Assembly (NCBI RefSeq): GCF_020905345.1
Contig: NZ_JAJJMO010000001.1
Location: forward strand, 2,728,001-2,792,000
DNA from: Flavobacterium pisciphilum
Lineage (GTDB): Bacteria > Bacteroidota > Bacteroidia > Flavobacteriales > Flavobacteriaceae
DNA length: 64,000 bases
Reading direction: 5' to 3'
The notes beneath the pieces are model-generated. The model made no database searches. It saw nothing but the letters and a program-made list of their open reading frames with translations, and was not told where the DNA came from. The position numbers were made by a program, and so were the translations under genes. Position 1 is the stretch's first letter; each line of letters opens with the position of its first letter. Positions 9,020-46,802 of the stretch are shown piece by piece.

Positions 9020-9032
9020 TAAACGAAAACGC

Positions 9033-22860: not shown

Positions 22861-24414
22861 TTATAAATCAAATTTTATTCCTTGTGCCAATGGCAAACTT
22901 GTAGTATAATTGATTGTGTTGGTTTGACGACGCATGTAAATTTTCCAAGCATCAGAACCTGATTCACGACCACCACCAGTTTCTTTTTCACCACCAAAAG
23001 CACCACCAATTTCAGCACCAGAAGTTCCTATGTTTACGTTTGCAATACCGCAATCAGAACCTACAACTGATAAGAAATGCTCTGCTTCACGCAAATTATT
23101 GGTCATGATTGCTGAAGACAATCCTTGTGCAACACCGTTTTGAATGTCAACTGCATTTTCAACAGTTCCACTATATTTTATTAAATACAAAACAGGAGCA
23201 AACGTTTCGTGTTGTACAATTTCAAATGAATTCTGAGCTTCAGCTATAGCTGGTTTTACATAACAACCACTTTCATACCCTTCTCCAGAAAGTACTCCAC
23301 CTTCTACAAGAATTTTTCCTCCTTCAGCAACAACTTTTGTTAAAGCATTTGCATACATTGCTACTGCATCTGTATCGATAAGCGGACCAACATGGTTATT
23401 CTCATCCAAAGGATTTCCGATACGTAACTGTTTGTAAGCTGAAACAATCGCATCTTTTACTTTATCATAAATACTTTCATGAATAATCAAACGACGTGTT
23501 GATGTACAACGTTGTCCTGCAGTCCCTACAGCACCAAAAACAGCACCAATAACTGTCATTTTTATATCTGCATCTGGAGTAACAATAATTGCATTGTTTC
23601 CACCTAATTCTAATAATGATTTACCTAAACGTCCTGCAACAGCTTGTGCAACAATTTTACCCATACGAGTAGAACCTGTAGCTGAGATTAAAGGAATACG
23701 TTTATCATTTGTCATTAACTCCCCAACTTTGTAATCTCCATTTATTAAACAAGAAATTCCTTCTGGAAGGTTGTTCTCTTTAATTACTTGTGCAATTATA
23801 TTTTGGCAAGCTATTCCACAAAGTGGTGTTTTTTCAGATGGCTTCCACACGCAAACATCTCCACAAATCCAAGCTAAAGCTGTATTCCATGACCAAACCG
23901 CTACTGGAAAGTTAAATGCCGAAATAATTCCGACAACTCCCATTGGGTGATATTGCTCATACATACGGTGTCCTGGACGCTCTGAATGCATTGTTAAACC
24001 ATGAAGCTGACGTGATAATCCTACTGCGAAATCGCAAATATCAATCATCTCTTGAACTTCTCCATATCCTTCTTGTAATGATTTCCCCATTTCGTAAGAA
24101 ACCAATTTACCTAAAGCTTCTTTATTTTGACGCAATTTTTCTCCAAACTGACGCACAATTTCACCACGTTGTGGTGCTGGCATAAGTCTAAATACTTTAA
24201 AAGCTTCTGTTGCTGTCTGCATTACTTTTTCATAATCGGCAGCTGTTGATGTTTTTACTGATGCAATTAATTTTCCGTCTACTGGCGAAAAACTATCTAA
24301 GGTATCTCCTGAAGAAAAATGATTTATTCCAGTTGATGTCCCTTCGTTTATGGCTTTTATACCCAATTGCGCCAATGCGTCTTTCATTCCGAATTGCTCT
24401 GCTATTGTTATCAT
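22861..24414 (-). CDS. ALDH7-type aldehyde dehydrogenase (aminoadipate semialdehyde dehydrogenase-like)
   Basis: NAD-dependent aldehyde dehydrogenase of 517 residues, most like the ALDH7/AmaB group that oxidises 2-aminoadipate 6-semialdehyde (in equilibrium with piperideine-6-carboxylate). Active-site elements are N168 in AFNFPV, general base E269 in LLELGGNN and nucleophile C303 in TAGQRCTST. It is monocistronic, with a terminator. In lysine or hydroxylysine catabolism it would make 2-aminoadipate, which could link it to the kinase-phospholyase fusion at 41785-44088. The subgroup call rests on overall resemblance; other semialdehydes remain possible. Confidence 0.8.
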   Translation of the reverse strand: MITIAEQFGMKDALAQLGIKAINEGTSTGINHFSSGDTLDSFSPVDGKLIASVKTSTAADYEKVMQTATEAFKVFRLMPAPQRGEIVRQFGEKLRQNKEALGKLVSYEMGKSLQEGYGEVQEMIDICDFAVGLSRQLHGLTMHSERPGHRMYEQYHPMGVVGIISAFNFPVAVWSWNTALAWICGDVCVWKPSEKTPLCGIACQNIIAQVIKENNLPEGISCLINGDYKVGELMTNDKRIPLISATGSTRMGKIVAQAVAGRLGKSLLELGGNNAIIVTPDADIKMTVIGAVFGAVGTAGQRCTSTRRLIIHESIYDKVKDAIVSAYKQLRIGNPLDENNHVGPLIDTDAVAMYANALTKVVAEGGKILVEGGVLSGEGYESGCYVKPAIAEAQNSFEIVQHETFAPVLYLIKYSGTVENAVDIQNGVAQGLSSAIMTNNLREAEHFLSVVGSDCGIANVNIGTSGAEIGGAFGGEKETGGGRESGSDAWKIYMRRQTNTINYTTSLPLAQGIKFDL

Positions 24415-26684: not shown

Positions 26685-27224
26685 TTATTTTTTAGCCGTA
26701 AATCTCGGGTCTGATTCCATCACAGTACCACAATTAGTACAGGTTCTCAAATCCTTAGAATTGTAGAAATGCTCAAAGTGTGGCAAGAAATCTTTTTCGA
26801 TGTTATGAAGTTCAAAAAACACTTCGTACAATTTATGATTGCAAGTATCACAATGCCAAAGCAATCCATCTTTATGTCCTTTTCCAACTCGTTTTCTTTC
26901 GATTACCAAGCCTATAGAACCTTCTGAGCGTACTGGACAATGTGGTATACGAGCAGGATGAAGATACATATCTCCTGCATGCAAATCCATTTCTTTGCGC
27001 TCTCCGTCTTCTTGAATAATAACTTTTATACTCCCCTCAAGTTGGTAAAACAACTCTTCGGTTTCATTATAGTGATAATCCTTTCGGGCATTTGGTCCCG
27101 CAACAACCATTACAATATAATCTTCAGATTCGATATATAAGTTTTTATTACCTACTGGTGGTTTAAGTAGGTGACGATTTTCATCAATCCATTTAGTAAG
27201 ATTGAATGGTTTTGCTATAGCCAT
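26685..27224 (-). CDS. nbaC: 3-hydroxyanthranilate 3,4-dioxygenase
   Basis: Cupin dioxygenase of 179 residues that opens the ring of 3-hydroxyanthranilate in the kynurenine route to quinolinate/NAD or in tryptophan breakdown. Iron ligands H51, E57 and H95 and substrate arginines R47 and R99 fall at the numbering known from the Ralstonia enzyme. The rubredoxin-like second metal site is C125, C128, C162 and C165. No other kynurenine-pathway gene lies next to it. Confidence 0.95.
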   Translation of the reverse strand: MAIAKPFNLTKWIDENRHLLKPPVGNKNLYIESEDYIVMVVAGPNARKDYHYNETEELFYQLEGSIKVIIQEDGERKEMDLHAGDMYLHPARIPHCPVRSEGSIGLVIERKRVGKGHKDGLLWHCDTCNHKLYEVFFELHNIEKDFLPHFEHFYNSKDLRTCTNCGTVMESDPRFTAKK

Positions 27225-31962: not shown

Positions 31963-31998
31963 AATCCCTTTTTCAATTTAAAAATTGAGAAAGGGATT
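31963..31998 (+). terminator. Terminator after the ACT-like gene
   Basis: AATCCCTTTTTCAATTT pairs with AAATTGAGAAAGGGATT (one mismatch), followed by T run. Confidence 0.85.
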
Positions 31999-32108: not shown

Positions 32109-32503
32109 AAAGAATTCAAATAGAATACATTCTTCTTAAGTAACTAATTTTAGTGTTAAAACAGCATAAATTTTCTCACTTACATCAATCCTTTTTATAC
32201 TTTAAAATTTATTCTGGATACATCTCAATTTTAAAAAAACTAACCGTTTAAGAATAAAAACACAGAATAAGAGATTACTTGAAAATATTTCATTTCTCTC
32301 ATTTTTACTTAATATTACAAAGACAAAGCCTACATAATATAAAGTTTTACTTGTTTTCATCAAGTAGCAACCTCTCTTTTACGAGTTAATAATTCAATAA
32401 AACAGTATTAATTATTAACCTTAAATCTCCTTCAATTTATCTGTTTTACTTTCTGATAAAATACTTTATCAAAAGAATTCTTAGCTCAAAGCTAAAAAAC
32501 AAA

Positions 32504-32548
32504 CTGGTAGGTACTGGTGTATTTTACATATGCAATCCTTTAAATTTG
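32504..32548 (+). promoter_or_regulatory. Candidate susC promoter with operator-like direct repeat
   Basis: A -7 box TAAATTTG (32541-32548) lacks a TTG at -33. At about that position lie the direct repeats CTGGTA (32504) and CTGGTG (32514), 10 bases apart, about one helical turn. CTGGTAGG also occurs at 32091-32098. This arrangement suggests an activator-dependent promoter. Confidence 0.4.
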
Positions 32549-32708: not shown

Positions 32709-35700
32709 ATGAAACAATTAAAAAACTTACTTAGGAAGCCTTTTCTAATGCCGATCATTCTCCTTTTTTGGCTACCTAGTACGCTGCTTGCGCAGGAGAC
32801 TCAGGCAAAAAAAACTATCTCTGGAAAAGTTACAGATGATAAGAACAACACTTTACCAGGTGTTAGTATATCTATACAAGGCACTAAATACAATGCTGCA
32901 ACAGATTTTGACGGATCTTACACGCTAACGTATACTCCAAGTGGTACAAATCAAACTATTATTTTTTCATACGTAGGTTTTATAGAAAAAAAAGAAGCAC
33001 TTGATAATCGCCATGAGATAAATGTATCAATGCAAGAAGAAACTAATAAACTTAATGAGGTAATCGTTATTGGATATGGTTCTCAAAAGAAAAGTAATGT
33101 TACTGGAGCAATCTCATCTATAAAGAAGGAAAGCCTTGAAACACGAGCTACAACAAATCCTGCTGAGGCACTACAAGGCTTAGTTGCTGGAGTAAATGTG
33201 CAAAAAAGTGGTGGTATTGCTGGAGCTGATGTAAAAGTAAAAATACGTGGAGTAAATACCTTTGGAGCAACTGAACCTCTTTACATTATTGATGGATTTC
33301 AAGGTTCAATATCAACAGTAAACCCAACAAATATAGAATCTATGGAGGTTCTTAAAGATGGTGCAGCTGCTGCAATTTACGGATCTGTTGCTGCCAATGG
33401 AGTAATTATTGTAACAACAAAAAGCGGTCAAAAAGAAGGAGTAAAAGTAGATTTCAGCTCATTTTTGGCTTATAAAAACACGGCAAAAACACTAGATTTA
33501 TTAGATGCTGATGGTTATCGTACTGTACATAAAAGAATGTATGATGAATATAACAAATATGCTACTTCTCCTAAAACACTTCCTGCTTATATCACTGATC
33601 CATCAACAACTAATACCGACTGGCAAGATGAGGTGTTCCGTTCTGGACTTACTCAAAATTATGGTTTAGGTGTACAAGGAAGACAAGGCGATTTTAAATT
33701 TGCTTTATATGGTAACTATGTGAAAGAAAAAGGAATTGTTATCGACAATACTTTTGGTCAACAAACTGCTAGCGCAAGAGTTAGTTTCAAAAAATCAATT
33801 TTTGATGTAGATGGAAAAATGGCATTCATAGGAACGCAAAATGCATTACCTAATTTTCAATTAAGAGAAGTATATGCAATATCACCTTTAGTACCTGTTT
33901 ATGATGCAAATGAACCTTATGGTTATGGCTTAACAAACAAAAATGGTTTGCCTACTAATACAAACCCTGTTGCTGAAGAACATTTCAAAAAAAGAACGGA
34001 CAAAGGACAGGATTTAACAGCAAATATTGCGATAACTGCTAACATTAGCTCTTGGTTAAAATACAAAATAGCCTATTCTTATCGTGTAAAAAACAATCAA
34101 GACGCTGCTCATTTCCCTCCTTACATTGCAAACCCAAAAGAAGTTCACCTTTATCCATTGCAAACCGAAGTGAGAACACATTGGGATGAACAAATACTAG
34201 ACAACATTATAACAATTGATAAAACTTTTGGGAAACATACTTTTGGTTTAATGCTTGGTAATACTATAAATGGTGTATCATCAAACTGGAATCAAGTTAG
34301 CGTAGAAGGAAAAACAACTGATTATTCTGTAGAGAATGGACAATTGGTTTCAATAGATCGTCCATCTGGGTTTTTAGATCCTAGTTTCGAAACTATAGGC
34401 GCTGGTAAAGGAGGAACATACTCAGCAGATGGTTCAAAATATCAATACAATCGCGTTTCTTTCTTTAGCCGATTGAACTATTCTTTCAATGACCGTTACT
34501 TACTTCAAATGACCATTAGAAAAGATGGCTCATCTAAATTTGGAGAAGACAGCCGTTGGGGAACTTTCCCTTCTATCGCATTAGGATGGAAAATAGAGCA
34601 AGAAGACTTCTTCCCGAAAGACTTTATCATATCAACTTTAAAATTACGTGCTAGCTGGGGACAACTAGGTAACGAAGCTGCCTTAGGATACTATTCTGCA
34701 AACACATTAATTAGAACAGGAAACTCTTTAGATTCTGGTTACGTACAAGGAAACGGTAGTAATCCATGGCCTGGAAGTATTGCAACTACATTAGAAAACA
34801 GAAACCTACAATGGGAAACAACTGATTCTAAAAATATTGGTATTGATTTTACTCTTAAAAATGGAAAAATTAGTGGTTCTATGAACTACTACCATAATGT
34901 AACAGACAATTTATTGATTACAAAAAAACTAGCTCCATCTGCTGGAATTGATGATCCGATTTTAAACGTAGGTAAAATTAGCAATAGTGGATTTGAACTT
35001 GAAGTTAATTACCGCGATCAGGTTAATGAATTTAAATACAATGTAGGTTTCAACATGTCTACCCTTAAAAACAAAGTAATTTCACTTGCAAACGAAGGAC
35101 AGACAATTTATGGAGAAGGCTTAAAATATGGAGACGAACACTTCCCAACTCAAGCTCGCGTAGGAAATCCGATTAGTGGTTTCTATTTATACAAAACTGA
35201 TGGTATTTTTCAATCTGCGCAGGAAGTAGCCAATCACAGCAAAAATGGTGTTTTATTACAACCAAATGCACAACCTGGAGATATTCGATTTAAAGATTTA
35301 AACGGAGATGGTGTTATAGATGAAAATGATAAAGCATACTCTGGAACTGGATTACCAAAATTTGAGGCTAATATTAGTTTAGGAGCAAGTTATAAAGGTT
35401 TCGATTTCTCTGCATTAATAGGAAGTGGCTGGGGTAACAAATTATACAACGGAAACAGATATTTCTATGAATCTATGAACGCTGGAACCAATATGTTGGC
35501 TTCAACGCTAAATTCATGGACACCAGAAAACCCTACTAACACTCCTCGTGCCGTTTTACAAGATCCAAATGGAAATAGCCGCGAATCAGATCGTTTTCTT
35601 GAAAGTGGCGATTTTATAAGAATGCGTCAGTTACAAATTGGGTATACAATCCCTAATAAAATGCTAGGTGGAGCGAAAATAGACAAACTGAGAATTTATG

Positions 35701-35846
35701 TGAGTGCAGAGAACTTATTCACTATCACAAACTACTCAGGTATAGATCCAGAATTCTCACGTACTTCTGTTCTGAATACAGGAATTGACCGTTTCGTGTA
35801 TCCATTTACAAGAACGTTTGTAACAGGTGTTCAATACATATTTTAA
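32709..35846 (+). CDS. SusC/RagA-type TonB-linked outer membrane transporter
   Basis: Outer-membrane importer of 1045 residues. The signal peptide ends near A28. A carboxypeptidase-regulatory-like domain covers about 34-110 (GVSISIQGTKYNAATDFDGS). The plug starts at V-x-GYG (about 118-124) and contains MEVLKDGAAAAIYG, followed by a 22-strand-type barrel ending in VTGVQYIF. No extra STN domain is present, so ECF/anti-sigma control is not indicated. It pairs with the SusD homologue 23 bases downstream and should import an oligosaccharide or glycoconjugate for the enzymes encoded next. Confidence 0.96.
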   Translation: MKQLKNLLRKPFLMPIILLFWLPSTLLAQETQAKKTISGKVTDDKNNTLPGVSISIQGTKYNAATDFDGSYTLTYTPSGTNQTIIFSYVGFIEKKEALDNRHEINVSMQEETNKLNEVIVIGYGSQKKSNVTGAISSIKKESLETRATTNPAEALQGLVAGVNVQKSGGIAGADVKVKIRGVNTFGATEPLYIIDGFQGSISTVNPTNIESMEVLKDGAAAAIYGSVAANGVIIVTTKSGQKEGVKVDFSSFLAYKNTAKTLDLLDADGYRTVHKRMYDEYNKYATSPKTLPAYITDPSTTNTDWQDEVFRSGLTQNYGLGVQGRQGDFKFALYGNYVKEKGIVIDNTFGQQTASARVSFKKSIFDVDGKMAFIGTQNALPNFQLREVYAISPLVPVYDANEPYGYGLTNKNGLPTNTNPVAEEHFKKRTDKGQDLTANIAITANISSWLKYKIAYSYRVKNNQDAAHFPPYIANPKEVHLYPLQTEVRTHWDEQILDNIITIDKTFGKHTFGLMLGNTINGVSSNWNQVSVEGKTTDYSVENGQLVSIDRPSGFLDPSFETIGAGKGGTYSADGSKYQYNRVSFFSRLNYSFNDRYLLQMTIRKDGSSKFGEDSRWGTFPSIALGWKIEQEDFFPKDFIISTLKLRASWGQLGNEAALGYYSANTLIRTGNSLDSGYVQGNGSNPWPGSIATTLENRNLQWETTDSKNIGIDFTLKNGKISGSMNYYHNVTDNLLITKKLAPSAGIDDPILNVGKISNSGFELEVNYRDQVNEFKYNVGFNMSTLKNKVISLANEGQTIYGEGLKYGDEHFPTQARVGNPISGFYLYKTDGIFQSAQEVANHSKNGVLLQPNAQPGDIRFKDLNGDGVIDENDKAYSGTGLPKFEANISLGASYKGFDFSALIGSGWGNKLYNGNRYFYESMNAGTNMLASTLNSWTPENPTNTPRAVLQDPNGNSRESDRFLESGDFIRMRQLQIGYTIPNKMLGGAKIDKLRIYVSAENLFTITNYSGIDPEFSRTSVLNTGIDRFVYPFTRTFVTGVQYIF

Positions 35847-35869
35847 TTCTATTTCTAAAAGACACAATC

Positions 35870-37369
35870 ATGAAGAAGATATTTTTTATATTATCCGTTA
35901 TAGGCCTATGCACTACCACAAGTTGTAGTGACTATCTAGACCAACAATCTCCCGATGAACTTACTTCAAATAATTTCTGGAGAAACAAAGCCGATGCCGA
36001 ATCTGGTTTGGCAGCAACTTATTCTCAACTCGAAGGAGCAGTTGATCAGTGGGCTTTTGCTGAAGTAAAATGGCCAGTAGAAGCGTATCGCGAAGATATT
36101 TGTGAGCTTGGAAGCGACGCCTTAAATTACCAAAGCTGGGTAGAACTTTCAACATTTACCTATACCAATGGAAATAGTCAATTTACTAGCTATTGGAGAC
36201 TCAACTACAGAGGTATTAGTAATGCAAATCAAGTTATTGATAAGTTGCCACAAATTCCAGCTGCAACTATTACTGATGCTGACCGCAGACAAATTGAAGC
36301 CGAAGCTCGTTTTTTACGCGCCTATTATCACATGAAATTGCTTCTTAACTGGGAACAAATTTATATCAGAAACAAATATATAACCAAAGAAAGTGACCTA
36401 AACATTCCGTTGTCAACACGTGTAGAAACATGGAATTTCATTACAAGTGAACTTAAAGCTGTAGCCGAAATATTACCTCCTAAACAACCACAAGATAAAA
36501 CAGGTCGTGCAACTAGTGGAGCAGCTAATAGCTACTTAGGATTTGCTTATTTGACAAGAGCATACGAAGAAACAGCTCAAAAACAAATATTCTTAAATGA
36601 ATCGCTTGCTGCATTAAACAAAGTGCAAGGATATGATTTAGTAAAAGATTATGTTTCGATGTTTGATGGTACTATCAGAAATTCGAAAGAATCAATTTTT
36701 GAACTACAATTTTCAGAAACAACTGCTAATGGTGCTTTCTATCGTAATGCACTTCATTTTTGGATGGCAGCAGGTGAACTAGGCGGATGGGATGAAATTC
36801 TTCCGAGTACTATGCTTGTAGATGAATTTAAAAAAGAAGGAAAAATAGCTACTACAGGAAATTATGATACCCGTATGTATAGCATACTTTTCTTTAAAGA
36901 CCCATATTTTAATGACGCAGCTAATCCAAGAGTATTAGGAACTACTTATGATGACAAATTTGGCGGTACTGACAAGCCAGTATTCCGCAAATTCATACCA
37001 AACACTCAAGAAAAAATGGATCAAGAATATACTGCAATCAATGTACCGCTTATGCGATACTCGAATGTACTATTAATGCAAGCTGAAGCTCTAAATGAAT
37101 TAGGTCGTACTCCAGAAGCTATTCCATATATTAACAAAGTTCGTGATAGAGCAGATATGCCTGCAATGACTGGTACAACTGGTAATGAGGTAAAAGCTCA
37201 AATCGAACACGAAAGAATACTGGAATTCCCTCTTGAAAACTACCGTTTTTATGATTTACGTCGTTGGGGCAAAACAAAATCGGCTCTTGATGCTGTCGGT
37301 CGTACCGGTTTTGATGCTGCAAAAAACAATTTTTACCCAATTCCATTAACAGAATTACAAGCAAATTAA
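35870..37369 (+). CDS. SusD/RagB-type surface glycan-binding lipoprotein
   Basis: Predicted 499-residue lipoprotein. The signal peptide ends in TTTSC with lipidated C19, followed by the SusD N-terminal region (YLDQQSPDELTSNNFW) and the C-terminal SusD domain (EALNELGRTPEAIPYINKVR and a FYPIPLTELQAN end). SusD proteins cap the SusC barrel and bind the ligand. It is encoded just after its SusC partner. A hairpin terminator or attenuator follows before the enzyme genes. Confidence 0.95.
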   Translation: MKKIFFILSVIGLCTTTSCSDYLDQQSPDELTSNNFWRNKADAESGLAATYSQLEGAVDQWAFAEVKWPVEAYREDICELGSDALNYQSWVELSTFTYTNGNSQFTSYWRLNYRGISNANQVIDKLPQIPAATITDADRRQIEAEARFLRAYYHMKLLLNWEQIYIRNKYITKESDLNIPLSTRVETWNFITSELKAVAEILPPKQPQDKTGRATSGAANSYLGFAYLTRAYEETAQKQIFLNESLAALNKVQGYDLVKDYVSMFDGTIRNSKESIFELQFSETTANGAFYRNALHFWMAAGELGGWDEILPSTMLVDEFKKEGKIATTGNYDTRMYSILFFKDPYFNDAANPRVLGTTYDDKFGGTDKPVFRKFIPNTQEKMDQEYTAINVPLMRYSNVLLMQAEALNELGRTPEAIPYINKVRDRADMPAMTGTTGNEVKAQIEHERILEFPLENYRFYDLRRWGKTKSALDAVGRTGFDAAKNNFYPIPLTELQAN

Positions 37370-37394
37370 TCTACTAAACATTTGCAATTTCTAA

Positions 37395-37432
37395 AAGAAT
37401 AGCCCTATATTTCTTGGGCTATTCTTTTTATC
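37395..37432 (+). terminator. Terminator/attenuator between susD and the GH63 gene
   Basis: AAGAATAGCCC (37395-37405) and GGGCTATTCTT (37416-37426) form a perfect 11-bp stem followed by T run. It could keep SusCD levels above enzyme levels. Confidence 0.85.
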
Positions 37433-37517
37433 TAATGATTTCGTATTTCTCTATTAATCCCTACTGAAATAAAGAAATACATATCAAAATAAAAACATTC
37501 AATAAAGACGAAACAAC

Positions 37518-39524
37518 ATGGGCAAAAGGCAAACACTTTTTATTCTTACATTCTTTTTTATATCACAATCCAATTGGGCTCAAAAAACTTTTCCGATTTT
37601 AGAATCTTCTAAAAACAGTTTAAATTATAAAGGAAATCCAACAGAGGCTACAGATAGAAACTCATTGGCTTTCTCCGATAAAGGAGCATGGTTCGCATTC
37701 GGATTTCTAGAACCAACTCAAGTTAAAGCAGGCTTTTCTGGTCCTTTTTTAATGACTGAAGAAAACGGAGTTTGGCTAAGTCCTTCATTAGTTTCATTGC
37801 AACTTAATGACGAAAACAAACACGAAGCCATCAACTGGAAAAATGCCTTAGTGAGCCAAAACAGCTACAATAGCCATTTAGAACAACAATTTCAAAACGA
37901 AAAATTAGACATAAAGCAGCAACTTGTTTTTTTATCAGGTCATTCGGCATTGCAAAAAACAAGTATTACCAATAAAACTGGAAAGACCATAACACTTTAC
38001 CCCTCTTATGATTCCAATCTTTTTATAGATAACATACAGTTATCTAAAGAAAACAAAATATTAAAAATTGCTTCTAGAAAAAGTACTGCCATTGGATACA
38101 TTCAATTCCTTAACGCAACACCCGAAATCGAAATTACCAAACAAGGATATAAAGCTCAAACAGACAAATTAGTATTAAAGCCAAACGAAACCAAAGAGCT
38201 TGTTGTTTCTCAAACCTTTATTTTCCCTCAATATTCATGGAAAAACGAAAATGAAACCATAGCAAAAACAACATTCAATACACTTCTTAAAAACACCCAA
38301 AAAGAAAAAGAAAACCAATTGGCACAATTAATTGCCAAAAAGAAAACAGTTTACAAAGACGCCATCTACTCTGATTTGGTCGCTAAACTAGTGCTTACAC
38401 TGCAAAACAATACCCGAATTGCAGCTGAAGGATTAAAACACGGAGGGCTTTTTCCGAGTTACAACTACAAATGGTTTCACGGATTTTGGGCATGGGACAG
38501 CTGGAAACATGCAGTTGCGGTTGCAAATTATGATTCAGAATTGGCCAAAAACCAAATGCGCGCCCTATTTGATTATCAAGAACCAAACGGATTTATTCCA
38601 GATTGTATATACAGAAACAACCTAATCGAAGAAAACAATTACCGAAATACCAAATCTCCACTTGCTGCATGGGCAATCTGGAAAATTTATGAAAAGACAA
38701 AAGATGCCAACTTCATAAAGGAATTTTATCCTAAACTAAAGCTATACCACAACTGGTGGTACAAAGAGCGTGACCATGATCAAGATGGTTTATGCGAATT
38801 TGGATCAACAGATGGTACCTTAGTCGCTGCCAAATGGGAAAGCGGAATGGACAATGCAGTGCGTTTTGACGATAGCAAAATTCTGAAAAATGGAGATAAA
38901 GCCTATTCATTAGACCAAGAAAGCGTTGATTTAAATTCGTTTTTATATGCCGAAAAGAACTTTTTAAATAAGATGGCAGAGGTATTGAAACTAACTGAAG
39001 AAGCTAAAAAATGGCAAGAAGAAAGTGTAACACTAAAAGCTAAAATTCAAACCCAATTCTGGGATGCAACCACAGGTTGGTATTACGATACATCAATCGA
39101 TGGAAAAACGTTAATAAAAGCAATGGGATGCGAAGGCTATTTACCGATTTGGGCAGAGGTGGCTACTACCGAGCAAACCAAATTAATAAAAGAAAACATG
39201 CTTAACCCAGCTACACTTAACACTTTTGTTCCTTTACCAACATTAGCAGCAAATCACCCAAAATTCAAACCAAATAACGGTTATTGGAGAGGGCCAATCT
39301 GGCTTGATCAAAGTTATTTTGGTATAAATGGATTGGAGAAATATGGCTATACAAACGAAGCAAATCAATTGGCTCACAAACTAATTCATAATGCCGAAGG
39401 AGTTATAGATAAAGGCACATCTATTCGAGAAAATTACCAACCACTTACAGGAAAAGGGCTAGAAGCTTTTAATTTTAGTTGGTCAGCCTCACATTATTTA
39501 ATGCTTCTTTTAGAAGACAAATAG
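37518..39524 (+). CDS. GH63 family exo-alpha-glucosidase, YgjK-like
   Basis: Predicted 668-residue (alpha/alpha)6-barrel glycosidase with a signal peptide (cleavage near NWAQ), so periplasmic. It closely resembles E. coli YgjK along the barrel: WAWDSWK (D327), RNTKSPLAAWA, AKWESGMDNA (D445, likely general acid), LDQESVD, NTFVPLPT, YWRGPIWLDQ and IRENYQPLTG (E638, likely base), FNFSWSASHY. GH63 enzymes release glucose from alpha-linked ends. I recall that YgjK glycosynthase work pointed to Glc-alpha-1,2-Gal as its likely natural motif. It is followed 45 bases later by a GH42 gene. Confidence 0.88.
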   Translation: MGKRQTLFILTFFFISQSNWAQKTFPILESSKNSLNYKGNPTEATDRNSLAFSDKGAWFAFGFLEPTQVKAGFSGPFLMTEENGVWLSPSLVSLQLNDENKHEAINWKNALVSQNSYNSHLEQQFQNEKLDIKQQLVFLSGHSALQKTSITNKTGKTITLYPSYDSNLFIDNIQLSKENKILKIASRKSTAIGYIQFLNATPEIEITKQGYKAQTDKLVLKPNETKELVVSQTFIFPQYSWKNENETIAKTTFNTLLKNTQKEKENQLAQLIAKKKTVYKDAIYSDLVAKLVLTLQNNTRIAAEGLKHGGLFPSYNYKWFHGFWAWDSWKHAVAVANYDSELAKNQMRALFDYQEPNGFIPDCIYRNNLIEENNYRNTKSPLAAWAIWKIYEKTKDANFIKEFYPKLKLYHNWWYKERDHDQDGLCEFGSTDGTLVAAKWESGMDNAVRFDDSKILKNGDKAYSLDQESVDLNSFLYAEKNFLNKMAEVLKLTEEAKKWQEESVTLKAKIQTQFWDATTGWYYDTSIDGKTLIKAMGCEGYLPIWAEVATTEQTKLIKENMLNPATLNTFVPLPTLAANHPKFKPNNGYWRGPIWLDQSYFGINGLEKYGYTNEANQLAHKLIHNAEGVIDKGTSIRENYQPLTGKGLEAFNFSWSASHYLMLLLEDK

Positions 39525-39569
39525 TTAAACTAATTACCTAAATTCGATTAACCATCAATAAAACCAAGT

Positions 39570-41705
39570 ATGTTCAAGCAAAATATATCTTTAGTTAAAA
39601 TTTTATTTACCCTATTATTTATTGCAAATTGTAATTCAAATCCTGTTTTCTCTCAAAGTAAAAAGACTACTCCTTCAGAGAAAAAAGACCCACAACGTTT
39701 CTTTTCAAAACCCGATTTAATGCAAATTGGTGTTTATTACTATCCTGAACAATGGCCGAGAGAACAATGGGAACGTGATTTAAAAAACATAAAAAAACTA
39801 GGGTTTGAGTTTACTCATTTTGCTGAATTTGCTTGGACTTATATGGAACCTGAAGAAGGAAAATATGATTTTAAATGGCTAGATGATGCTCTAGCTATCG
39901 CGGAAAAAGAAGGTTTAAAAGTAATTCTTTGTACTCCAACTCCAACTCCCCCAGCATGGATGGGAGATAAATATCCTGAAATTTATTTAGTAGATGCAAA
40001 CGGACGCCGCAGAGAGCATGGTAATAGAGCAAATGTGTCTATAACAAATGAAAAATACCGCGAATTTACAGATCAGATAATAGCCGAATTAGGAAAAAGA
40101 TACGGTAAGAATAAAAACATTATGGGTTGGCAAATCGATAACGAACCTTTGGGTAGTGCCGATTTTAGTCCTTCTGCTCGTAAAGCATTTCAAATTTGGC
40201 TTAAAGCCAAATACGGAACAATCGAAAAACTAAATACAGAATGGGTAGGAAACTTTTGGAGTACTCGTTATAACAACTTCGAACAAATAGTTATCCCTAA
40301 TGCAGAAATTTATTTTGAGGATAAATTAAGCCCACACGCGATCTTAGATTTTAAAAGATTTACCTCAGATGCACAAGGTGAATATTTAAACAGACAAGCC
40401 AAAATACTTCGAAAATACGTTGATTCAAAACAATGGATAACAACCAACTTTACTAATGTAATTTACGATGCCGATCCAAGAAGTGCTAACAAAATGGATT
40501 TTATTACCTACACGATGTATCCTGTGAGTGGAAGAAATCCATTAGGAGGAGATAGTTTTAGAATAGGACATCCAAACAAAATTTCGGAAGCCAACGATTA
40601 TTACAGATCTATAAGCGGTGTTACTGGTGTTATGGAATTACAACCAGGACAAGTAAATTGGGCTAGCATAAATCCACAATTACTTCCCGGAACAGTTCAT
40701 ATGTGGATATCACAAGCTTTTGGTGGCGGTTGCTCATTTACTTGCACCTATAGATACAGACACCCACTAGGAAGTAGCGAAATGTACCACGATGGAATCG
40801 TAGGAACTGATGGCGTAACTCTTACTACTGGCGGAAAAGAATTTGTACAATCTATCCAAGATATGAAATTACTTCGTGCAGCATACAATCCAAAAGCAGT
40901 AATCCCACAGGACATTGCCAAAAGAAAAACAGGCTTTTTATGGAGTCACGAAAATCTTTGGGATTTAGAAAACCAAAAACAAACTGAATTCTGGAGTACA
41001 TGGAAACACAGATCTATCTATACAACTGCTATAAAATCAACTGGAGCACCAATGGATTTTATTACCGAAGAAGATGATTTCTCTGCTTATCCGTTTATTG
41101 TTGCACCCGCTTACCAACTTATAGATCAAAAATTAGTTGACAAATGGACTAAATATGTAGAAAACGGAGGAAACTTAATTCTTTCTTGCCGTACCGGTCA
41201 AAAGGATAGAAACGGGCATTTTTTCGAAGCCAATTGGAGCGCACCAATTGTACCGCTAATTGGAGCCGATGTTGAGTTTTTTGACATGCTTGTTGCCGAT
41301 GTCAACGGAACAATAAGTTCTGGTAACACTACTTATAAATGGAACACATGGGCAGATGTACTGAACCCAAAACAAGGAACTGAAGTTCTAGCAACATATA
41401 CAGACCAGTTTTACAAAGGTAAAGCGGCAGCCATTACAAGAAAACTAGGCAAAGGAACCGTTACTTATATTGGAGCAGAAAGCAAAGATGGAAATCTGGA
41501 AAGACAAGTTGTACGAACTATTTACGAACGTGCAAAAGTTGCTATCGAAGATTTACCAAAGGGTGTATTTGTAGAATGGAGAGATGGTTTTTATGTAGGT
41601 GTAAACTATACAAACGAACCTATAAACTTACCAATACCACAAGGAAGTAAAATCCTTGTTGGACAAAATCCTTTGCAACCAGCCCAAGCTATTATTTGGA
41701 AATAG
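39570..41705 (+). CDS. GH42 family beta-galactosidase
   Basis: TIM-barrel beta-galactosidase of 711 residues with an exported N terminus; C21 in FIANCNSN could be lipidated, though the lipobox is atypical. Diagnostic features are IGVYYYPEQWPREQWERDL, acid/base E192 in GWQIDNEPLG and nucleophile E356 in GVMELQPGQVNW, then the trimerisation and C-terminal domains. GH42 enzymes cleave terminal beta-galactosides. Next to an alpha-glucosidase and a hydroxylysine-type kinase, a galactosyl-hydroxylysine substrate is plausible but unproven. Confidence 0.93.
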   Translation: MFKQNISLVKILFTLLFIANCNSNPVFSQSKKTTPSEKKDPQRFFSKPDLMQIGVYYYPEQWPREQWERDLKNIKKLGFEFTHFAEFAWTYMEPEEGKYDFKWLDDALAIAEKEGLKVILCTPTPTPPAWMGDKYPEIYLVDANGRRREHGNRANVSITNEKYREFTDQIIAELGKRYGKNKNIMGWQIDNEPLGSADFSPSARKAFQIWLKAKYGTIEKLNTEWVGNFWSTRYNNFEQIVIPNAEIYFEDKLSPHAILDFKRFTSDAQGEYLNRQAKILRKYVDSKQWITTNFTNVIYDADPRSANKMDFITYTMYPVSGRNPLGGDSFRIGHPNKISEANDYYRSISGVTGVMELQPGQVNWASINPQLLPGTVHMWISQAFGGGCSFTCTYRYRHPLGSSEMYHDGIVGTDGVTLTTGGKEFVQSIQDMKLLRAAYNPKAVIPQDIAKRKTGFLWSHENLWDLENQKQTEFWSTWKHRSIYTTAIKSTGAPMDFITEEDDFSAYPFIVAPAYQLIDQKLVDKWTKYVENGGNLILSCRTGQKDRNGHFFEANWSAPIVPLIGADVEFFDMLVADVNGTISSGNTTYKWNTWADVLNPKQGTEVLATYTDQFYKGKAAAITRKLGKGTVTYIGAESKDGNLERQVVRTIYERAKVAIEDLPKGVFVEWRDGFYVGVNYTNEPINLPIPQGSKILVGQNPLQPAQAIIWK

Positions 41706-41784
41706 AAGAAATATGCTTTTAATTTATAACCTCATTTAGCTCCAAAAATCTTAACCGATAAAAATAATTTAATACCAAATACCA

Positions 41785-44088
41785 ATGATTTTTTCAGAAG
41801 CAGACATTCAGCAATTAGCGATAGAACATTATGGGTTATCCGCTACCGTAAAAGCACTAGACGGCTATGATGAATTGAATTTCATACTAACCGATGAAAA
41901 AAATCAGAAGTATATCTTAAAGCTTTCTGATGAAAATCAGCCCCATCCCTTCTTGGAAGCACAGGTAAAAATCATTCAGCACTTAAGAAAAAGTCCATTA
42001 GCCGATAATTTTCAGCAATTTTCTATAAATAAAAAAGGGGAAGCATTAACTCAAATTGCTAAAGACAATAAAACATATTATATACGGATTCTAAGTTTTC
42101 TCGAAGGTTCTTTCTGGTATGAACAACCAAAAAAATCAAATACTGCTCTTTACAATTTAGGAGCATTTATGGGGAATATGGACAAAGCATTACAGGATTT
42201 TTCACATCCAGCAATGCATCGCCATTATACTTGGGACATTAGCAGAGCTAGTGACGCCAATGAGAAACTGAAGTATATTACAAATCACGAACGCAGACGA
42301 ATTGCAGGTTATTTTCTTTTGCAGTTTGATACCGAAGTGCTTCCGCAAATACACCAGCTTCGACACGCATACATTCATAATGATGCCAACGACTGTAATG
42401 TAATGGCACGAGAAGAAAAAACAACTGGATTAATTGATTTTGGCGATATGGTTTATTCTGCCTTAATCAATAACCTTGCGATAGCTTGTACGTATGCAAT
42501 CCTAGAATATGATGATCCATTAACAGCTGCATCATTTATTGTAAAAGGATATCACGAAGCCTATCCTCTTAAAACAGAGGAACTTGATTTGTTATATTAC
42601 TTAATTGCAGGAAGACTTTGCATAAGCGTAACACAATCAGCATACAATGCATCTTTAAACAGCGATAACATACATCATTTTATTACCGAAAAACCGGCTT
42701 GGGAGTTATTATACAAACTCATCAAGATTAATCCCATAAAAGCACAAGATACTTTTAGAAAAGTATGCGGATTTGATGGTGTAATAAACGATTCGGATTA
42801 TTCGGATTTATTAGAACTTCGTCAAAAAAACGTAGGTCGAAATCTAAGTATTGGCTACAACGACAAATTAAAAATTGTAAAAGGAGCATTACAATATTTA
42901 TATGACGACAAAGGAAGAACTTTTGTCGATTGTGTAAACAATCCCTCTCATGTTGGGCATTGCCATCCTGTAGTGGTAAAGAAAATGCAAAAACAAATTG
43001 CGACTTTAAACACCAATACAAGGTACCTTAACAATACAATATTAGAATACGCCGAAAAACTTACTGCTACATTACCTCCCTCATTAAGCGTGTGCTATTT
43101 TGTAAACTCAGGTAGTGAGGCCAACGATTTAGCCATCCGAATGAGTCGCCATTACACCAAACAAAAAGATATTGTAGTACTAGACCATGCGTATCACGGA
43201 ACCTCAACCGTAGCAATGGAAATGAGTCCTTATAAATTTGATAGTAAAGGAGGTTTTGGTAAAATGCCTTGGATTCATAAAGCAATTAACCCCGACTTAT
43301 ATCGTGGCCCATATAAATATGGTGATGCTAATGCAGGCGAAAAATATGCCGCTGATGTACAACGAATTATTGAAGATTTAAAAAAAGAAAACAAATCGCC
43401 AGCAGTATTTATCTGTGAAACCCTATTGGGTGTTGGAGGTCAAATTCCGCTACCTGATAATTATTTAAAAACTGTTTATGATTACGTAAGAGCCTCAGGA
43501 GGTGTATGCATTGCCGATGAGGTACAAGTAGGTTTTGGAAGAGTTGGGGATAAGTTCTGGGGATTCGAACTGCAAGATGTGGTTCCAGATATTGTTGTAC
43601 TCGGAAAACCTATTGGTAACGGACACCCGCTTGCAGCAGTAATTGTAACAAATGAAATAGCCGATGCTTTTAATAACGGCATGGAATACTTCAATACTTT
43701 TGGAGGGAATCCGGTATCTATGTCAGCTGGATTAGCCGTTCTAGAAGTAATTCAAGATGAAGAAATGCAACAGCACGCTTTGGAAGTAGGCAATCACCTA
43801 ATGGATTTACTAAAAGGATTAATGAATAAGTTTCCAATTATCAGCGATGTTCGTGGTCATGGATTATTTATTGGTGCCGAAATGGTAAAAGACAGGACCA
43901 CTATGGAACCAGCAATTCCAGAAATTGATATTGTAGTCGAAAAGATGAAAGAGAAAGGGTATTTACTAAGCACAGATGGGCCTTTACACAATGTTTTAAA
44001 GATAAAACCACCAATGCCATTCAATAAGCAAAATGCGGATGAAATGGCTCGATACCTTGAAGAAATTTTAAATGAGATTGGTCTTTAG
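41785..44088 (+). CDS. APH-type kinase fused to AGXT2L-type PLP phospholyase
   Basis: Two-domain cytoplasmic enzyme (767 residues). Residues about 1-330 form an aminoglycoside-phosphotransferase-like kinase with H198, D200 and N205 in HNDANDCN and DFG at 218-220. Residues about 345-767 form a class III aminotransferase-fold enzyme with SGSEAND (442-448), D578 in [10 protein letters not shown] and PLP lysine K608 in [10 protein letters not shown]. In animals, hydroxylysine kinase and the AGXT2L2 phospholyase act in sequence, giving 2-aminoadipate semialdehyde; AGXT2L1 acts on phosphoethanolamine. The fusion implies a shared intermediate. No signal peptide. Last gene of the locus. Confidence 0.87.
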
Positions 44089-44150
44089 AATAAATTAATT
44101 GTCAATTAGTTAATTACTCCACTGGGAATTTTTTATCTCAATAAATTAAA

Positions 44151-44183
44151 AAGGCGTATGAAATTTTCATACGCCTTTTTTTT
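44151..44183 (+). terminator. Terminator of the glycan locus
   Basis: AAGGCGTATG (44151-44160) and CATACGCCTT (44168-44177) form the stem, followed by a T run. Confidence 0.9.
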
Positions 44184-44235: not shown

Positions 44236-45582
44236 TTATCCTTTAAGCACCTTACTTTTCTCTTCATCAAATTCTTCTTGCGAAAGAATTCCTGCATCAA
44301 GCAGTTCTTTTAAATCCAATAACGCTTTCTTTTTAGCAGCCATCGGATCTTGTTCTGTACCATTTGTTGGTTGACTTTGTTGCTGCTGAGGTGCAACAGT
44401 TGTTCCTGCGGGACTTGCCTTTAAAATGAATTCCGTTATTTCATTAAAGCCTTTAATATTACTGTAATCAATAGCTTTTTGTTCTTTTACATTCACAATG
44501 CTTAAATCTGCATTTTGGTCTAAAAGATATTTTACAACATCTTTCTTTCCACTTGCCGCAGCATAATGCATAGGTGTATTACCACTTTCATCTTGAATAT
44601 TAATGTTTGCATCTCTTTCGATCAGCAATTTCACCATACTTAAATTACCTTTTTTAGCAGCTACATGCAACAAACTTTCACCACCATAACTATAAGAAGC
44701 ATTAAGTGTAAATGTTGCTTCAATTGAAATGTTGTTAGCGGCTTCTATCCAATCTAAATAACTGTTCATAGAAGTAGTATCTTCGCTAAGTGGCTTACTA
44801 AAATTGACATCTACTCCATTATCTAAGAATAGTTCAACCATTTCTTTCTGATTCTTAGCACAAACATACCAAACAGGCAGAAGTCCATTATTTGAAGTTG
44901 TTAATACATCAGCACCTTTATCAATCAGCAGTTTCACAATTGCCCTGTTTGCTTCATAACAAGCAATTAGTAAAGCACTTTCTCCAGCATGATTAGCATG
45001 GTTGATATCAACACTATTATCTAAAAGCAAAGTCACTATAGGCAAGGCTTTAGAACGAACAGCAAGGATAAGTGTGTTATCACCTATTTTATTGGTCGTA
45101 TTAATTTCTGCACCATTGTTCAATAACAATTCAACAATTTCTTTGTTTCTCAAACTAGCTGCGATTAATAGTGCTGTTTCAGCATTATTATCAGGCATAT
45201 CAACATCAAAACCTTGTTCAAGTAATTGTTTAACAATTTCAGTTTGTCCGGTTTGCGCAGCAAGGTGCAATAAACTTTTGCCTTGTTTATCTTTGATAGT
45301 TACATCAGCCCCTTTATCAAGAAGATAAGTTGCTGTTTGCTTTTGTTTCTGAAGACAGGCAAAAAACAAGGATGTTTCGCCATTATGATCTTCGTAATTA
45401 ATAGCTGCACCTTCATCAATAAGGATTTTTACTATATCAAGATAACCGCGATGTGCAGCATAATGTAATGCTGTTCGTCCTCTTTCATCAGTATATTTTA
45501 CATCTACTTCTTTATTGGCTAGCAATAACTCTGCAATTTTCCTATTACCATTTTCACAGGCAATTATAAATGACATTGACAT
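44236..45582 (-). CDS. Ankyrin-repeat protein with C-terminal SHOCT domain
   Basis: Predicted 448-residue protein made of about ten ankyrin repeats (GRTALHYAAHRGYLDIVKIL, GETSLFFACLQKQKQTATYL and so on). A Gln-rich linker follows, then a short SHOCT-type domain at the end (ALLDLKELLDAGILSQEEFD). SHOCT segments are short oligomerisation-like helices often found at protein termini. No signal peptide. It lies 35 bases after a second ankyrin gene in a likely operon. The partner protein is unknown. Confidence 0.9.
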   Translation of the reverse strand: MSMSFIIACENGNRKIAELLLANKEVDVKYTDERGRTALHYAAHRGYLDIVKILIDEGAAINYEDHNGETSLFFACLQKQKQTATYLLDKGADVTIKDKQGKSLLHLAAQTGQTEIVKQLLEQGFDVDMPDNNAETALLIAASLRNKEIVELLLNNGAEINTTNKIGDNTLILAVRSKALPIVTLLLDNSVDINHANHAGESALLIACYEANRAIVKLLIDKGADVLTTSNNGLLPVWYVCAKNQKEMVELFLDNGVDVNFSKPLSEDTTSMNSYLDWIEAANNISIEATFTLNASYSYGGESLLHVAAKKGNLSMVKLLIERDANINIQDESGNTPMHYAAASGKKDVVKYLLDQNADLSIVNVKEQKAIDYSNIKGFNEITEFILKASPAGTTVAPQQQQSQPTNGTEQDPMAAKKKALLDLKELLDAGILSQEEFDEEKSKVLKG

Positions 45583-45617
45583 TTTTATAGTTTTTTAAAT
45601 TATAGTTTTTTTGATTT

Positions 45618-46802
45618 TTATACTTTTTGCTGCATCAATAGTTCAACCGTTTTTATTTTAAGGTTGTCTGTTTGTGCTAGCGCTGAAGGAGTTTCATCTT
45701 TATCATTTACAACACTTGCATCAGCACCTGCACCCAATAATAATTTCACTTTCTGGTAGATACCCTTCGCCGCTTCTGCATCATAATTTACATTAAATGC
45801 GCATACTTTATGCAATACTGTGTTACCTGTATCGTCTTTTCTGTCAATATCTATATTCCCATTTTCTAATACAGCTTTCAGTACTGCTGCAGGTTTTTCT
45901 GCAAGCCAATCTACACCAGATTTTGGAGCGCTATAATAAAGACCTGTTTGATAAATATCGGCACCATCATTTAGCATTTCTAATAAAAATGCAATTTGAT
46001 TTTCTGATGCTCCAACCCCTTTTATAAAAGCTGGAAGAATACGTTCACCATCATTATTTTCTAAATCAAAATCTGGAGAAGCATATTGTTTTAATATTTT
46101 GTATAATTCAAAATCCTGCTGCCAATTAACCGCTAAATAAAATGCTGTATTCCCTTTATTATCCTGTTCATTAGCATCAGCTCCGTTTTGTAATAGAAAT
46201 TCCAAGCATTCTTTTTTTCTATCTTTTACTGCCGCCATCAATGGCGTTTCGCCAACGATGTCTTTTTCATTTACATCTAAACCTTCTGCAATCAACAATT
46301 CTAAATAAGCCAATGCCTGTTGAGTGTTCTGCATTCTTTTATTCACCACTTCATAAATAAAGTTCCGCTCTGCATTATTTTTGTAGCGAACATCACAACC
46401 TTCTTCAATCAAACATTTAATAATGGCAGGGTCTGCACCTTGCTCTAAACAATATCCTAGCAGGGTTTGATCTTTTACCTCATCGTTTTTATTATCAATT
46501 TTCTGCATGAACTCTTTCAGGAAAGAAATTGATTCATCATCCCCTTTCAATTCTGTAGCAATAGTTTTAAAGAATGATTTATCAAAGCTGTCATATTCAT
46601 AAACATCAGTTTCTATTATGCCGTTTTTAACTAAAGAATCAACTAAATCAAATGCCTTTGATCGTAGAATACTACTGAATATTTGCCCTTTATTATTTTC
46701 AAAATAGTGCCCCGAAAGTTTCTCTCCCTCATTTAATAATAATCTTGCTTCATCGATTTTCCCATAAAGGATTGCTTCAGCTAATTTGTTTTGTTCTGAC
46801 AT
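45618..46802 (-). CDS. Ankyrin-repeat protein
   Basis: Predicted 394-residue cytoplasmic protein with diverged ankyrin repeats, clearest at GETPLMAAVKDRKKECLEFL, GNTAFYLAVNWQQDFELYKI and GNTVLHKVCAFN near the end. It is the upstream member of a pair with the SHOCT-tailed ankyrin protein. The repeats of the two proteins differ enough that recent duplication is unlikely. No other recognisable domain. Confidence 0.88.
   Translation of the reverse strand: MSEQNKLAEAILYGKIDEARLLLNEGEKLSGHYFENNKGQIFSSILRSKAFDLVDSLVKNGIIETDVYEYDSFDKSFFKTIATELKGDDESISFLKEFMQKIDNKNDEVKDQTLLGYCLEQGADPAIIKCLIEEGCDVRYKNNAERNFIYEVVNKRMQNTQQALAYLELLIAEGLDVNEKDIVGETPLMAAVKDRKKECLEFLLQNGADANEQDNKGNTAFYLAVNWQQDFELYKILKQYASPDFDLENNDGERILPAFIKGVGASENQIAFLLEMLNDGADIYQTGLYYSAPKSGVDWLAEKPAAVLKAVLENGNIDIDRKDDTGNTVLHKVCAFNVNYDAEAAKGIYQKVKLLLGAGADASVVNDKDETPSALAQTDNLKIKTVELLMQQKV

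What the first reader, a model, noticed from the sequence alone, without database searches (positions are those of the whole stretch)
32709..44088. Candidate utilisation locus for collagen glucosylgalactosyl-hydroxylysine
Five co-directional genes lie between terminators at 31963 and 44151: a SusC/SusD importer, a YgjK-like GH63 alpha-glucosidase, a GH42 beta-galactosidase and a kinase-phospholyase fusion of the hydroxylysine type. Collagen carries Glc-alpha-1,2-Gal-beta-O-hydroxylysine. The gene set matches its stepwise breakdown: GH63 removes the alpha-1,2-glucose, GH42 removes the beta-galactose, the APH domain phosphorylates hydroxylysine, and the AGXT2L domain eliminates phosphate and ammonia to give 2-aminoadipate semialdehyde. 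Family assignments and order are read from the sequence; the animal hydroxylysine pathway and the preference of YgjK for Glc-alpha-1,2-Gal are recalled knowledge; the combined pathway is inference. A hydroxylysine permease and a collagenase are missing from the locus.
Basis: partly seen in the sequence, partly recalled or inferred. Interest (0 to 1): 0.93.

Follow-up and report, generated by a model that had tools for sequence, protein, structure and literature searches.

The report
Collagen glyco-hydroxylysine degradation gene cluster
A Flavobacterium genome carries a compact set of genes that looks built to strip the two sugars off collagen's special amino acid, hydroxylysine, and then break that amino acid down, and other bacteria carry the same set in several rebuilt forms.

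Summary
In 91 same-genus genomes the fusion is in 13 and the GH63 in 12, all fusion carriers, and in each of the 12 GH63, GH42 and fusion are neighbours. Some relatives add, in the same cluster, the enzymes that hydroxylysine predicts and ethanolamine does not: piperideine-6-carboxylate dehydrogenase (above curated cut-off), HglS, and a D-2-hydroxyglutarate-dehydrogenase-like protein. In other families and phyla other glycosidase families fill the two sugar-cutting roles (GH63+GH2, GH31+GH2, one GH63-GH2 protein) near the fusion. Hydroxyproline genes co-occur. Against: nothing is assayed; this genome lacks HglS; five of 11 close-GH63 genomes in a phylum sample have no fusion found; 53 of 80 named fusion loci show no such glycosidase in the held flanks. 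My literature searches (open-licence library only) found no such locus.

The parts
31963..31998 (+). intrinsic-terminator-like hairpin after the upstream gene
32503..32518 (+). direct-repeat element ACTGGTAGGTACTGGT, 190 bp before SusC; putative regulator site
   Evidence: the only exact copy in the genome; but at up to 2 mismatches the genome has 7 matches against 9 for the reversed control; one match in the window against 0.05 expected, 4 of 100 shuffles had at least one; exact copies before the cluster in L031/L046, L064 and L034, in 5 of 164 loci in all counting the window's own L158; function inferred
32709..35846 (+). SusC/RagA TonB-dependent outer-membrane importer
35870..37369 (+). SusD/RagB surface-binding lipoprotein
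37518..39524 (+). YgjK-like GH63 alpha-glucosidase with an N-terminal export signal (by eye); D327, D445, E638; predicted to remove the alpha-1,2-glucose
39570..41705 (+). GH42 beta-galactosidase, possible lipoprotein (by eye); E192, E356; predicted to remove galactose from Gal-beta-hydroxylysine
41785..44088 (+). APH kinase (about 1-330) + class III aminotransferase-fold phospholyase (about 340-765) fusion, no signal peptide by eye; predicted hydroxylysine kinase / 5-phosphohydroxylysine phospholyase
44148..44180 (.). bidirectional terminator-like hairpin closing the cluster
22861..24414 (-). L-piperidine-6-carboxylate (aminoadipate-semialdehyde) dehydrogenase, 8 kb away and not in the operon; same family as the gene inside the cluster of relatives; predicted next step
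   Evidence: 829 bits against a 730 cut-off, NF050084; clustering with L037, L038, L039, L041

Best explanation
The cluster is a utilisation locus for collagen's glycosylated hydroxylysine. SusC/SusD bring Glc-alpha-1,2-Gal-beta-O-hydroxylysine (free or on a short peptide) through the outer membrane. GH63 removes the glucose and GH42 the galactose outside the cytoplasm. Free hydroxylysine enters by an amino-acid permease encoded elsewhere. The APH half of the fusion phosphorylates the 5-hydroxyl, and the aminotransferase-fold half eliminates phosphate and ammonia, giving 2-aminoadipate 6-semialdehyde / piperideine-6-carboxylate. A dehydrogenase (22861-24414 here; in the cluster in some relatives) oxidises it to 2-aminoadipate; in relatives with HglS, 2-oxoadipate then goes to D-2-hydroxyglutarate and on to 2-oxoglutarate. 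Shown: gene content, families, active-site residues, conserved linkage and co-occurrence. Inferred: every substrate, every localisation, and the order of the steps.
For: Families and residues. GH63 (E<=1e-60) in 12 of 150 relatives including own, all 12 fusion carriers; fusion in 13; Fisher over the 91 same-genus genomes 4e-14, optimistic because the genomes are related. GH63 and GH42 next to the fusion in 11 of 12 fetched loci. HglS (E<=1e-10) in 11 of 91 same-genus genomes, 10 of them fusion carriers (p 5e-10), and within about 12 kb of the fusion in 6 of those 10 (coordinates). P6C dehydrogenase above cut-off in the clusters of L037, L060 and L078. Other families in the same roles: GH2+GH63, GH2+GH31, one GH63-GH2 protein. 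Amino-acid permease in L032. Hydroxyproline-type genes beside GH63 in L035/L036; the dehydratase-like one (over 600 bits, a limit set after seeing the scores) in 7 of 13 fusion carriers and 0 of 78 others, p 2e-7; the whole proline-racemase family in 9 of 13 and 6 of 78, p 3e-6. Own genome has a hydroxyproline/prolyl-peptide locus with a secreted M43 protease.
Against: No enzyme tested. HglS not found in this genome, nor in carriers G004 and G045 (own rechecked by family, where 2 of 14 controls rang), while it occurs without the fusion in G019 and in three genomes of other genera. In the phylum sample 5 of 11 genomes with a close GH63 (over 360 bits) show no fusion or phospholyase at E<=1e-120, the best two candidates per genome being scored; one of them, G372, keeps SusC (53%), SusD (61%), GH2 and GH63, so the sugar part can serve without this hydroxylysine route, or for another aglycone. 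G045 has the fusion but no GH63. 53 of 80 named fusion loci show neither glycosidase type in the held flanks (some contigs are short). The nearest solved relative of the phospholyase half is the ethanolamine-phosphate enzyme. NCBIfam's YgjK equivalog cut-off is not met (352 of 625), and the D-2-hydroxyglutarate-DH model's is not either (570 of 1350).
Confidence: 0.83

Rival explanations
1. An ordinary oligosaccharide locus for an alpha-glucosyl-beta-galactoside of another origin (plant, algal or bacterial glycan), with a neighbouring kinase-phospholyase that serves free hydroxylysine and is not part of the same pathway.
For: SusCD-GH2-GH63 clusters exist in genomes where no fusion was found (G372/L156 and, less complete, G415/L154). 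The SusC/SusD pair is replaced in 1 and not seen in the 20-kb regions of 6 of 12 same-genus fusion loci.
Against: In the genus GH63 and fusion occur together (12 with both, 1 with fusion only, 0 with GH63 only, 78 with neither). They lie within 5 kb of each other in all 6 phylum-sample genomes that hold both (coordinates), and stay near each other when the glycosidase families or the gene order change.
Confidence: 0.09
2. The fusion is an ethanolamine kinase / phosphoethanolamine phospholyase, and the locus takes up an ethanolamine-bearing glycan.
For: Best solved relative of the aminotransferase half is human ethanolamine-phosphate phospho-lyase, E 1e-142.
Against: P6C dehydrogenase above cut-off, HglS and a D-2-hydroxyglutarate-DH-like protein in the clusters of relatives have no place in an ethanolamine pathway, which yields acetaldehyde (recalled); hydroxyproline-type genes co-occur.
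Confidence: 0.05
3. Chance clustering of a glycan locus and an unrelated amino-acid gene between two terminators in one lineage.
For: There is only one strong GH63 of this kind in the genome (the second match is 27% over part), so this genome alone could not exclude chance.
Against: Conservation in 11 of 12 congeners and in other families and phyla in different gene orders.
Confidence: 0.01

Closest known systems
Animal hydroxylysine pathway: hydroxylysine kinase (HYKK/AGPHD1) and 5-phosphohydroxy-L-lysine phospho-lyase (PHYKPL/AGXT2L2)
   Same: An APH-type kinase and a class III aminotransferase-fold phospholyase acting one after the other, here as one polypeptide. The 2012 title naming both activities was seen in reference lists; the paper is not held; gene symbols and family types are recalled.
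   Different: Bacterial, fused, and linked to glycosidases and an importer. No such enzyme was named among the best 60 of 189 solved matches shown, and the kinase half had no match, so closeness to the animal enzymes was not measured.
PGGHG, the vertebrate GH65 protein-glucosylgalactosylhydroxylysine glucosidase
   Different: GH65 in animals; GH63 here, GH31 in L054: other glycosidase families for the same predicted job.
FjGH65A, alpha-1,2-glucosidase of Flavobacterium johnsoniae
   Same: Same genus, alpha-1,2-glucosidase (passages of PMC8626586).
   Different: GH65, active on kojibiose, keyworded with dextran; the words GH63, YgjK and GH42 occur 0 times in the main text.
E. coli YgjK (GH63)
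   Same: Closest solved relative, active-site carboxylates kept. A passage says that its natural substrate is assumed to be another alpha-glucoside than nigerose (PMC9061262); its preference for Glc-alpha-1,2-Gal is recalled.
   Different: 668 residues against a 760-residue chain; below NCBIfam's YgjK equivalog cut-off; the E. coli neighbourhood was not looked at.
HglS route of lysine breakdown (Pseudomonas putida)
   Same: Relatives hold HglS (E 6.5e-34 to 6w1k, hydroxyglutarate synthase) and a D-2-hydroxyglutarate-DH-like protein; HglS converts 2-oxoadipate to D-2-hydroxyglutarate (passages of PMC7286885).
   Different: Entry from hydroxylysine, not lysine (inferred); HglS was not found in the window's own genome.
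Bacteroidota polysaccharide utilisation loci
   Same: SusC/SusD pair plus exo-glycosidases in one operon-like run.
   Different: The predicted target is a glycosylated amino acid, and the run also encodes the breakdown of the amino acid.

Membership tests
Polysaccharide utilisation locus | adjacent SusC/SusD pair | tested here: met
Polysaccharide utilisation locus | co-directional carbohydrate-active enzymes in the same run | tested here: met
   GH63 and GH42, gaps 45-148 bp
Polysaccharide utilisation locus | substrate-induced expression | not testable with these tools
   a conserved upstream element was seen, no expression data
YgjK-type GH63 | sequence relation and active-site carboxylates | tested here: met
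   E 2e-70; D327, D445, E638
YgjK-type GH63 | NCBIfam YgjK equivalog cut-off (625 bits) | tested here: not met
   352.4 bits: a relative, not filed as the same protein
YgjK-type GH63 | activity on Glc-alpha-1,2-Gal | not testable with these tools
   needs an assay
GH42 beta-galactosidase | Pfam catalytic and trimerisation domains, two catalytic Glu | tested here: met
   the role of the two Glu is recalled
Hydroxylysine kinase / phosphohydroxylysine phospholyase | APH kinase with HxDxxxxN and DFGD | tested here: met
   H198, D200, N205, D218-D221 invariant in 14 fusions; motif recalled
Hydroxylysine kinase / phosphohydroxylysine phospholyase | aminotransferase-fold phospholyase with PLP lysine | tested here: met
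   K608 invariant; the two best solved matches are phospholyases
Hydroxylysine kinase / phosphohydroxylysine phospholyase | acts on hydroxylysine, not ethanolamine | tested here: inconclusive
   genomic context favours hydroxylysine; sequence alone does not decide
HglS route downstream | P6C/aminoadipate-semialdehyde dehydrogenase | tested here: met
   in the window at 22861-24414, in the cluster in some relatives
HglS route downstream | HglS present in the same genome | tested here: not met
   not found in own genome; found in 10 of 13 fusion genomes
Collagen utilisation | genes for hydroxyproline and prolyl peptides in the same genome | tested here: met
   4-Hyp epimerase and Pyr2C reductase above cut-offs, M24 and S37 peptidase matches in own genome
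Collagen utilisation | collagenase | tested here: inconclusive
   Peptidase_M9 gave no match in own genome but no control rang either; a secreted M43 protease is in the Hyp locus, collagenolysis unknown

The most novel reading that the evidence does not exclude
A collagen-glycoside utilisation module that bacteria of at least three phyla have put together repeatedly from different parts: alpha-glucosidase (GH63 or GH31) plus beta-galactosidase (GH42 or GH2, once joined to GH63) plus a hydroxylysine kinase-phospholyase, feeding 2-aminoadipate semialdehyde into a lysine-type pathway. It would be a bacterial route for the Glc-Gal-Hyl unit, and it gives a sequence signature for finding collagen users.
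Probability: 0.77. Interest if true: 0.86.

Novelty: new variant of a known kind. Interest (0 to 1): 0.8.

Why it matters
Glc-Gal-hydroxylysine is the sugar mark of collagen, an abundant animal protein, yet my searches found no account of how bacteria degrade it. If right, the locus names the genes, says what a bacterial kinase-aminotransferase fusion does whose nearest NCBIfam model is named only 'hypothetical protein' (PRK06148), offers a substrate for some YgjK-like GH63 enzymes, and gives enzymes for collagen glycan analysis. It would also give a marker for bacteria that recycle animal remains.

Tried and rejected
Ethanolamine pathway: rejected as the main reading because some relatives carry P6C dehydrogenase and HglS in the cluster.

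Chance neighbourhood: rejected.

GH63 as a perfect marker: rejected. Five of 11 close-GH63 genomes in the phylum sample have no fusion found. Left out of 'close': 12 further GH63 matches of 107-139 bits.

HglS route in this organism: not supported, no HglS found. A 54% D-2-hydroxyglutarate-DH-like paralogue elsewhere in the genome proves nothing.

A Peptidase_M9 collagenase: no match, but no control rang, so no conclusion.

Fusions with an extra middle domain (18 of 80 named loci by clustering; the name peptidase M23 for it is recalled) lack the glycosidase pair by the count: 0 of 18 with both, 2 of 18 (Ensifer, L120 and L124) with a GH42 match at 29-30%. But L120 also has an MGH1-like protein that is a weak GH63 match (23%; Pfam), below one search's limit. 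And G343 has GH63, a 1012-aa fusion and GH2 in a row. So architecture is not a clean divider. The other 62 are 'the rest', one of them (L125) matched by the aminotransferase half only. G003's divergent 968-aa version (42%) was left out of the 13 carriers. L103's frames are broken into pieces and it was counted.

Literature, searches (open-licence PMC only; one search returned nothing; one search's 'susc' matched other words and was of no use): no bacterial Glc-Gal-Hyl locus found. The absence claim rests on these alone. Seen as passages only: PMC8626586, PMC12138971, PMC9061262, PMC7286885, PMC13406643; the rest as search listings.

Not done: structure prediction, signal-peptide software (signals were judged by eye), the large protein search, a look for unlinked collagen genes in relatives beyond.
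Full report
What is in the window. Five + strand genes run from 32709 to 44088 between terminator-like hairpins at 31963-31998 and 44148-44180. Profile searches name them SusC/RagA, SusD, a GH63-type glucosidase with a YgjK N-terminal domain, a GH42 beta-galactosidase, and a protein with an APH kinase domain followed by a class III aminotransferase domain. Solved relatives agree: YgjK for GH63, GH42 beta-galactosidases, and phospholyases as the two closest matches of the last half, ahead of true aminotransferases and racemases. Three carboxylates of the YgjK active site are kept (D327, D445, E638), as are two GH42 glutamates and the kinase and PLP-lysine residues of the fusion (their catalytic roles are recalled). 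By eye, GH63 starts with an export signal, GH42 and SusD look like lipoproteins, and the fusion has no signal; no signal-peptide program was run.

Is the neighbourhood real? The window lies in a genome of 5.46 Mb in 2 contigs. Its relative G004 is the same record as Flavobacterium sp. KMS (contig of 376543 bases), so the genus is taken to be Flavobacterium. In 150 relatives (own included, 91 of the same genus) a full-length fusion of 66% identity or more is in 13. GH63 at E<=1e-60 is in 12, each a fusion carrier. Fisher's test over the 91 gives 4e-14; relatedness makes that figure optimistic, but none of the 150 has this GH63 without the fusion. Twenty-kilobase regions around the 12 other fusions show GH63 and GH42 beside the fusion in 11; the exception is G045. 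In G017 the pair faces the fusion. SusC/SusD orthologues are there in 5 of 12, another SusC/SusD pair in 1, none seen in 6. So the core is GH63-GH42-fusion, and the importer is the loose part.

What some relatives add. Around the same core, L037, L039 and L041 carry HglS and a 517-aa aldehyde dehydrogenase upstream and a 982-aa flavin/iron-sulphur protein downstream (clusters, families of the L037 copies). The aldehyde dehydrogenase scores 832 bits against a 730 cut-off as L-piperidine-6-carboxylate dehydrogenase; the ring form of 2-aminoadipate 6-semialdehyde is its substrate (established chemistry), and that semialdehyde is the product expected from phosphohydroxylysine. HglS is a Pfam match and has solved relatives named hydroxyglutarate synthase; NCBIfam has no model that it meets. 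HglS turns 2-oxoadipate into D-2-hydroxyglutarate (PMC7286885 passages). The 982-aa protein is closest to D-2-hydroxyglutarate dehydrogenase but below that model's cut-off (570 of 1350). HglS is in 11 of 91 same-genus genomes, 10 of them fusion carriers (p 5e-10), and within about 12 kb of the fusion in 6; three genomes of other genera have it without the fusion. P6C dehydrogenase and HglS do not fit ethanolamine.

Collagen in particular. In L035 and L036 the genes beside GH63 are a proline-racemase-family enzyme nearest to trans-3-hydroxyproline dehydratase (371 bits, below the 540 cut-off) and a pyrroline-2-carboxylate reductase (378 bits, above 322), with S37 peptidases and, in L036, an M24 peptidase (the scores are for L035). 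That dehydratase-like gene (over 600 bits) is in 7 of 13 fusion carriers and in 0 of the other 78; the whole family, with the weaker epimerase-type matches, is in 9 of 13 and 6 of 78. The window's own genome has, about 2.4 Mb away, a locus with 4-hydroxyproline epimerase (592 bits, cut-off 376), a D-amino-acid-dehydrogenase-like and a DHDPS-family protein, an aldehyde dehydrogenase, M24 and S37 peptidase matches, a SusC/SusD-like pair and an M43 metalloprotease with a type IX secretion tail. Hydroxyproline is the other amino acid typical of collagen.

Beyond the genus. Of these, 19 have an alpha-glucosidase and a beta-galactosidase in the held flanks and 27 have at least one type. In Chitinophagaceae and Sphingobacteriaceae the order is SusC-SusD-GH2-GH63-fusion (L053, L060, L062, L065, L067-L070, L103), in L060 and L103 with HglS and P6C dehydrogenase next, in L068 with HglS. 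In a Saprospiraceae bin GH31 stands where GH63 would be (L054). In a Phycisphaera bin one 1650-aa protein carries both GH63 and GH2 (L089). In Colwellia-type bacteria GH2 abuts the fusion, with P6C dehydrogenase after it (L077-L079) or a GH63 some kilobases off (L075, L106). In G343 GH63 and GH2 flank a 1012-aa version of the fusion. GH2 and GH42 are remote kin (clan GH-A, recalled) but different families; GH31 and GH63 differ in fold (recalled). The two roles stay while the families change; that is the strongest argument that glucose-on-galactose and the phospholyase's substrate belong to one molecule.

What speaks against it. In a phylum sample of 395 genomes, 11 have a GH63 over 360 bits; 6 have the fusion within about 5 kb and 5 have no fusion or phospholyase found, with the best two candidates per genome scored (p 9e-4). 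G372 keeps SusC, SusD, GH2 and GH63 without it. Either these bacteria take only the sugars, or the sugar pair has another source there. A tree of 37 GH63 stretches puts these five in three places among the fusion-linked ones; its backbone is unresolved. HglS was not found in this genome. Many fusions stand without glycosidases (53 of 80; several contigs are short), which fits use of free hydroxylysine but leaves room for other substrates. No substrate is proven.

Regulation. A 16-base direct-repeat element lies at 32503-32518, the only exact copy in the genome; at two mismatches the pattern is no commoner than its reversed control (7 against 9). It is kept before the cluster in three further genomes (L031/L046, L064, L034), including L034, whose SusC/SusD pair is different; no copy is in the other loci searched. 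In the gammaproteobacterial loci a GntR-type regulator is nearby. The binding protein here is unknown.

Known or new. The kinase and phospholyase activities were identified in 2012 (title seen; paper not held; that the work was on human enzymes is recalled). The vertebrate glucosidase for the unit is GH65 (PMC8626586 passages). I found no bacterial locus for the unit in ten searches of an open-licence library (listed under Tried and rejected); subscription papers were not searched. I rate it a new variant of a known kind: a Sus-type locus whose target is a glycosylated amino acid and which also encodes the amino acid's breakdown.

Noticed in passing
window 22861-24414 (-): L-piperidine-6-carboxylate dehydrogenase, above curated cut-off, beside a CorA-family gene and an LRR protein, not in a recognisable lysine operon.
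   Followed up: partly
window 32503-32518 (+): Direct repeat ACTGGTAGGTACTGGT before SusC, kept in three further genomes; one more site with one mismatch at G000:C1:3074181-3074196, its neighbours not examined.
   Followed up: partly
window 9031-9110 (+): Flavo-1 RNA (RF01705), 75.6 bits against a 42 gathering score.
   Followed up: no
window 44236-46802 (-): Two ankyrin-repeat proteins in tandem directly after the cluster.
   Followed up: no
window 24500-26584 (-) and 26685-27224 (-): Two CorA-family transporters in tandem, and a 3-hydroxyanthranilate dioxygenase.
   Followed up: no
L151, L152 (G000:C1:340000-372000): Hydroxyproline and prolyl-peptide locus with its own SusC/SusD-like pair, a secreted M43 protease and a trans-3-hydroxyproline-dehydratase-like gene.
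   Followed up: partly
L089:5013-9965 (+): Single 1650-aa GH63-GH2 protein in a Phycisphaera bin, next to the kinase-phospholyase fusion and a sodium:solute symporter.
   Followed up: partly
L054:7772-9994 (+): GH31 in the place of GH63 in a Saprospiraceae version of the locus.
   Followed up: partly
L156 (G372:C2:56000-75999): SusC-SusD relatives with GH2 and GH63 but no kinase-phospholyase fusion found in the genome; the purpose of this shortened version is unexplained.
   Followed up: partly
L055, L066, L073, L075, L088, L097, L106: A saccharopine-dehydrogenase-like protein family near the fusion in these seven loci (cluster; Pfam for the L055 and an L106 copy): another link to lysine-type metabolism.
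   Followed up: no
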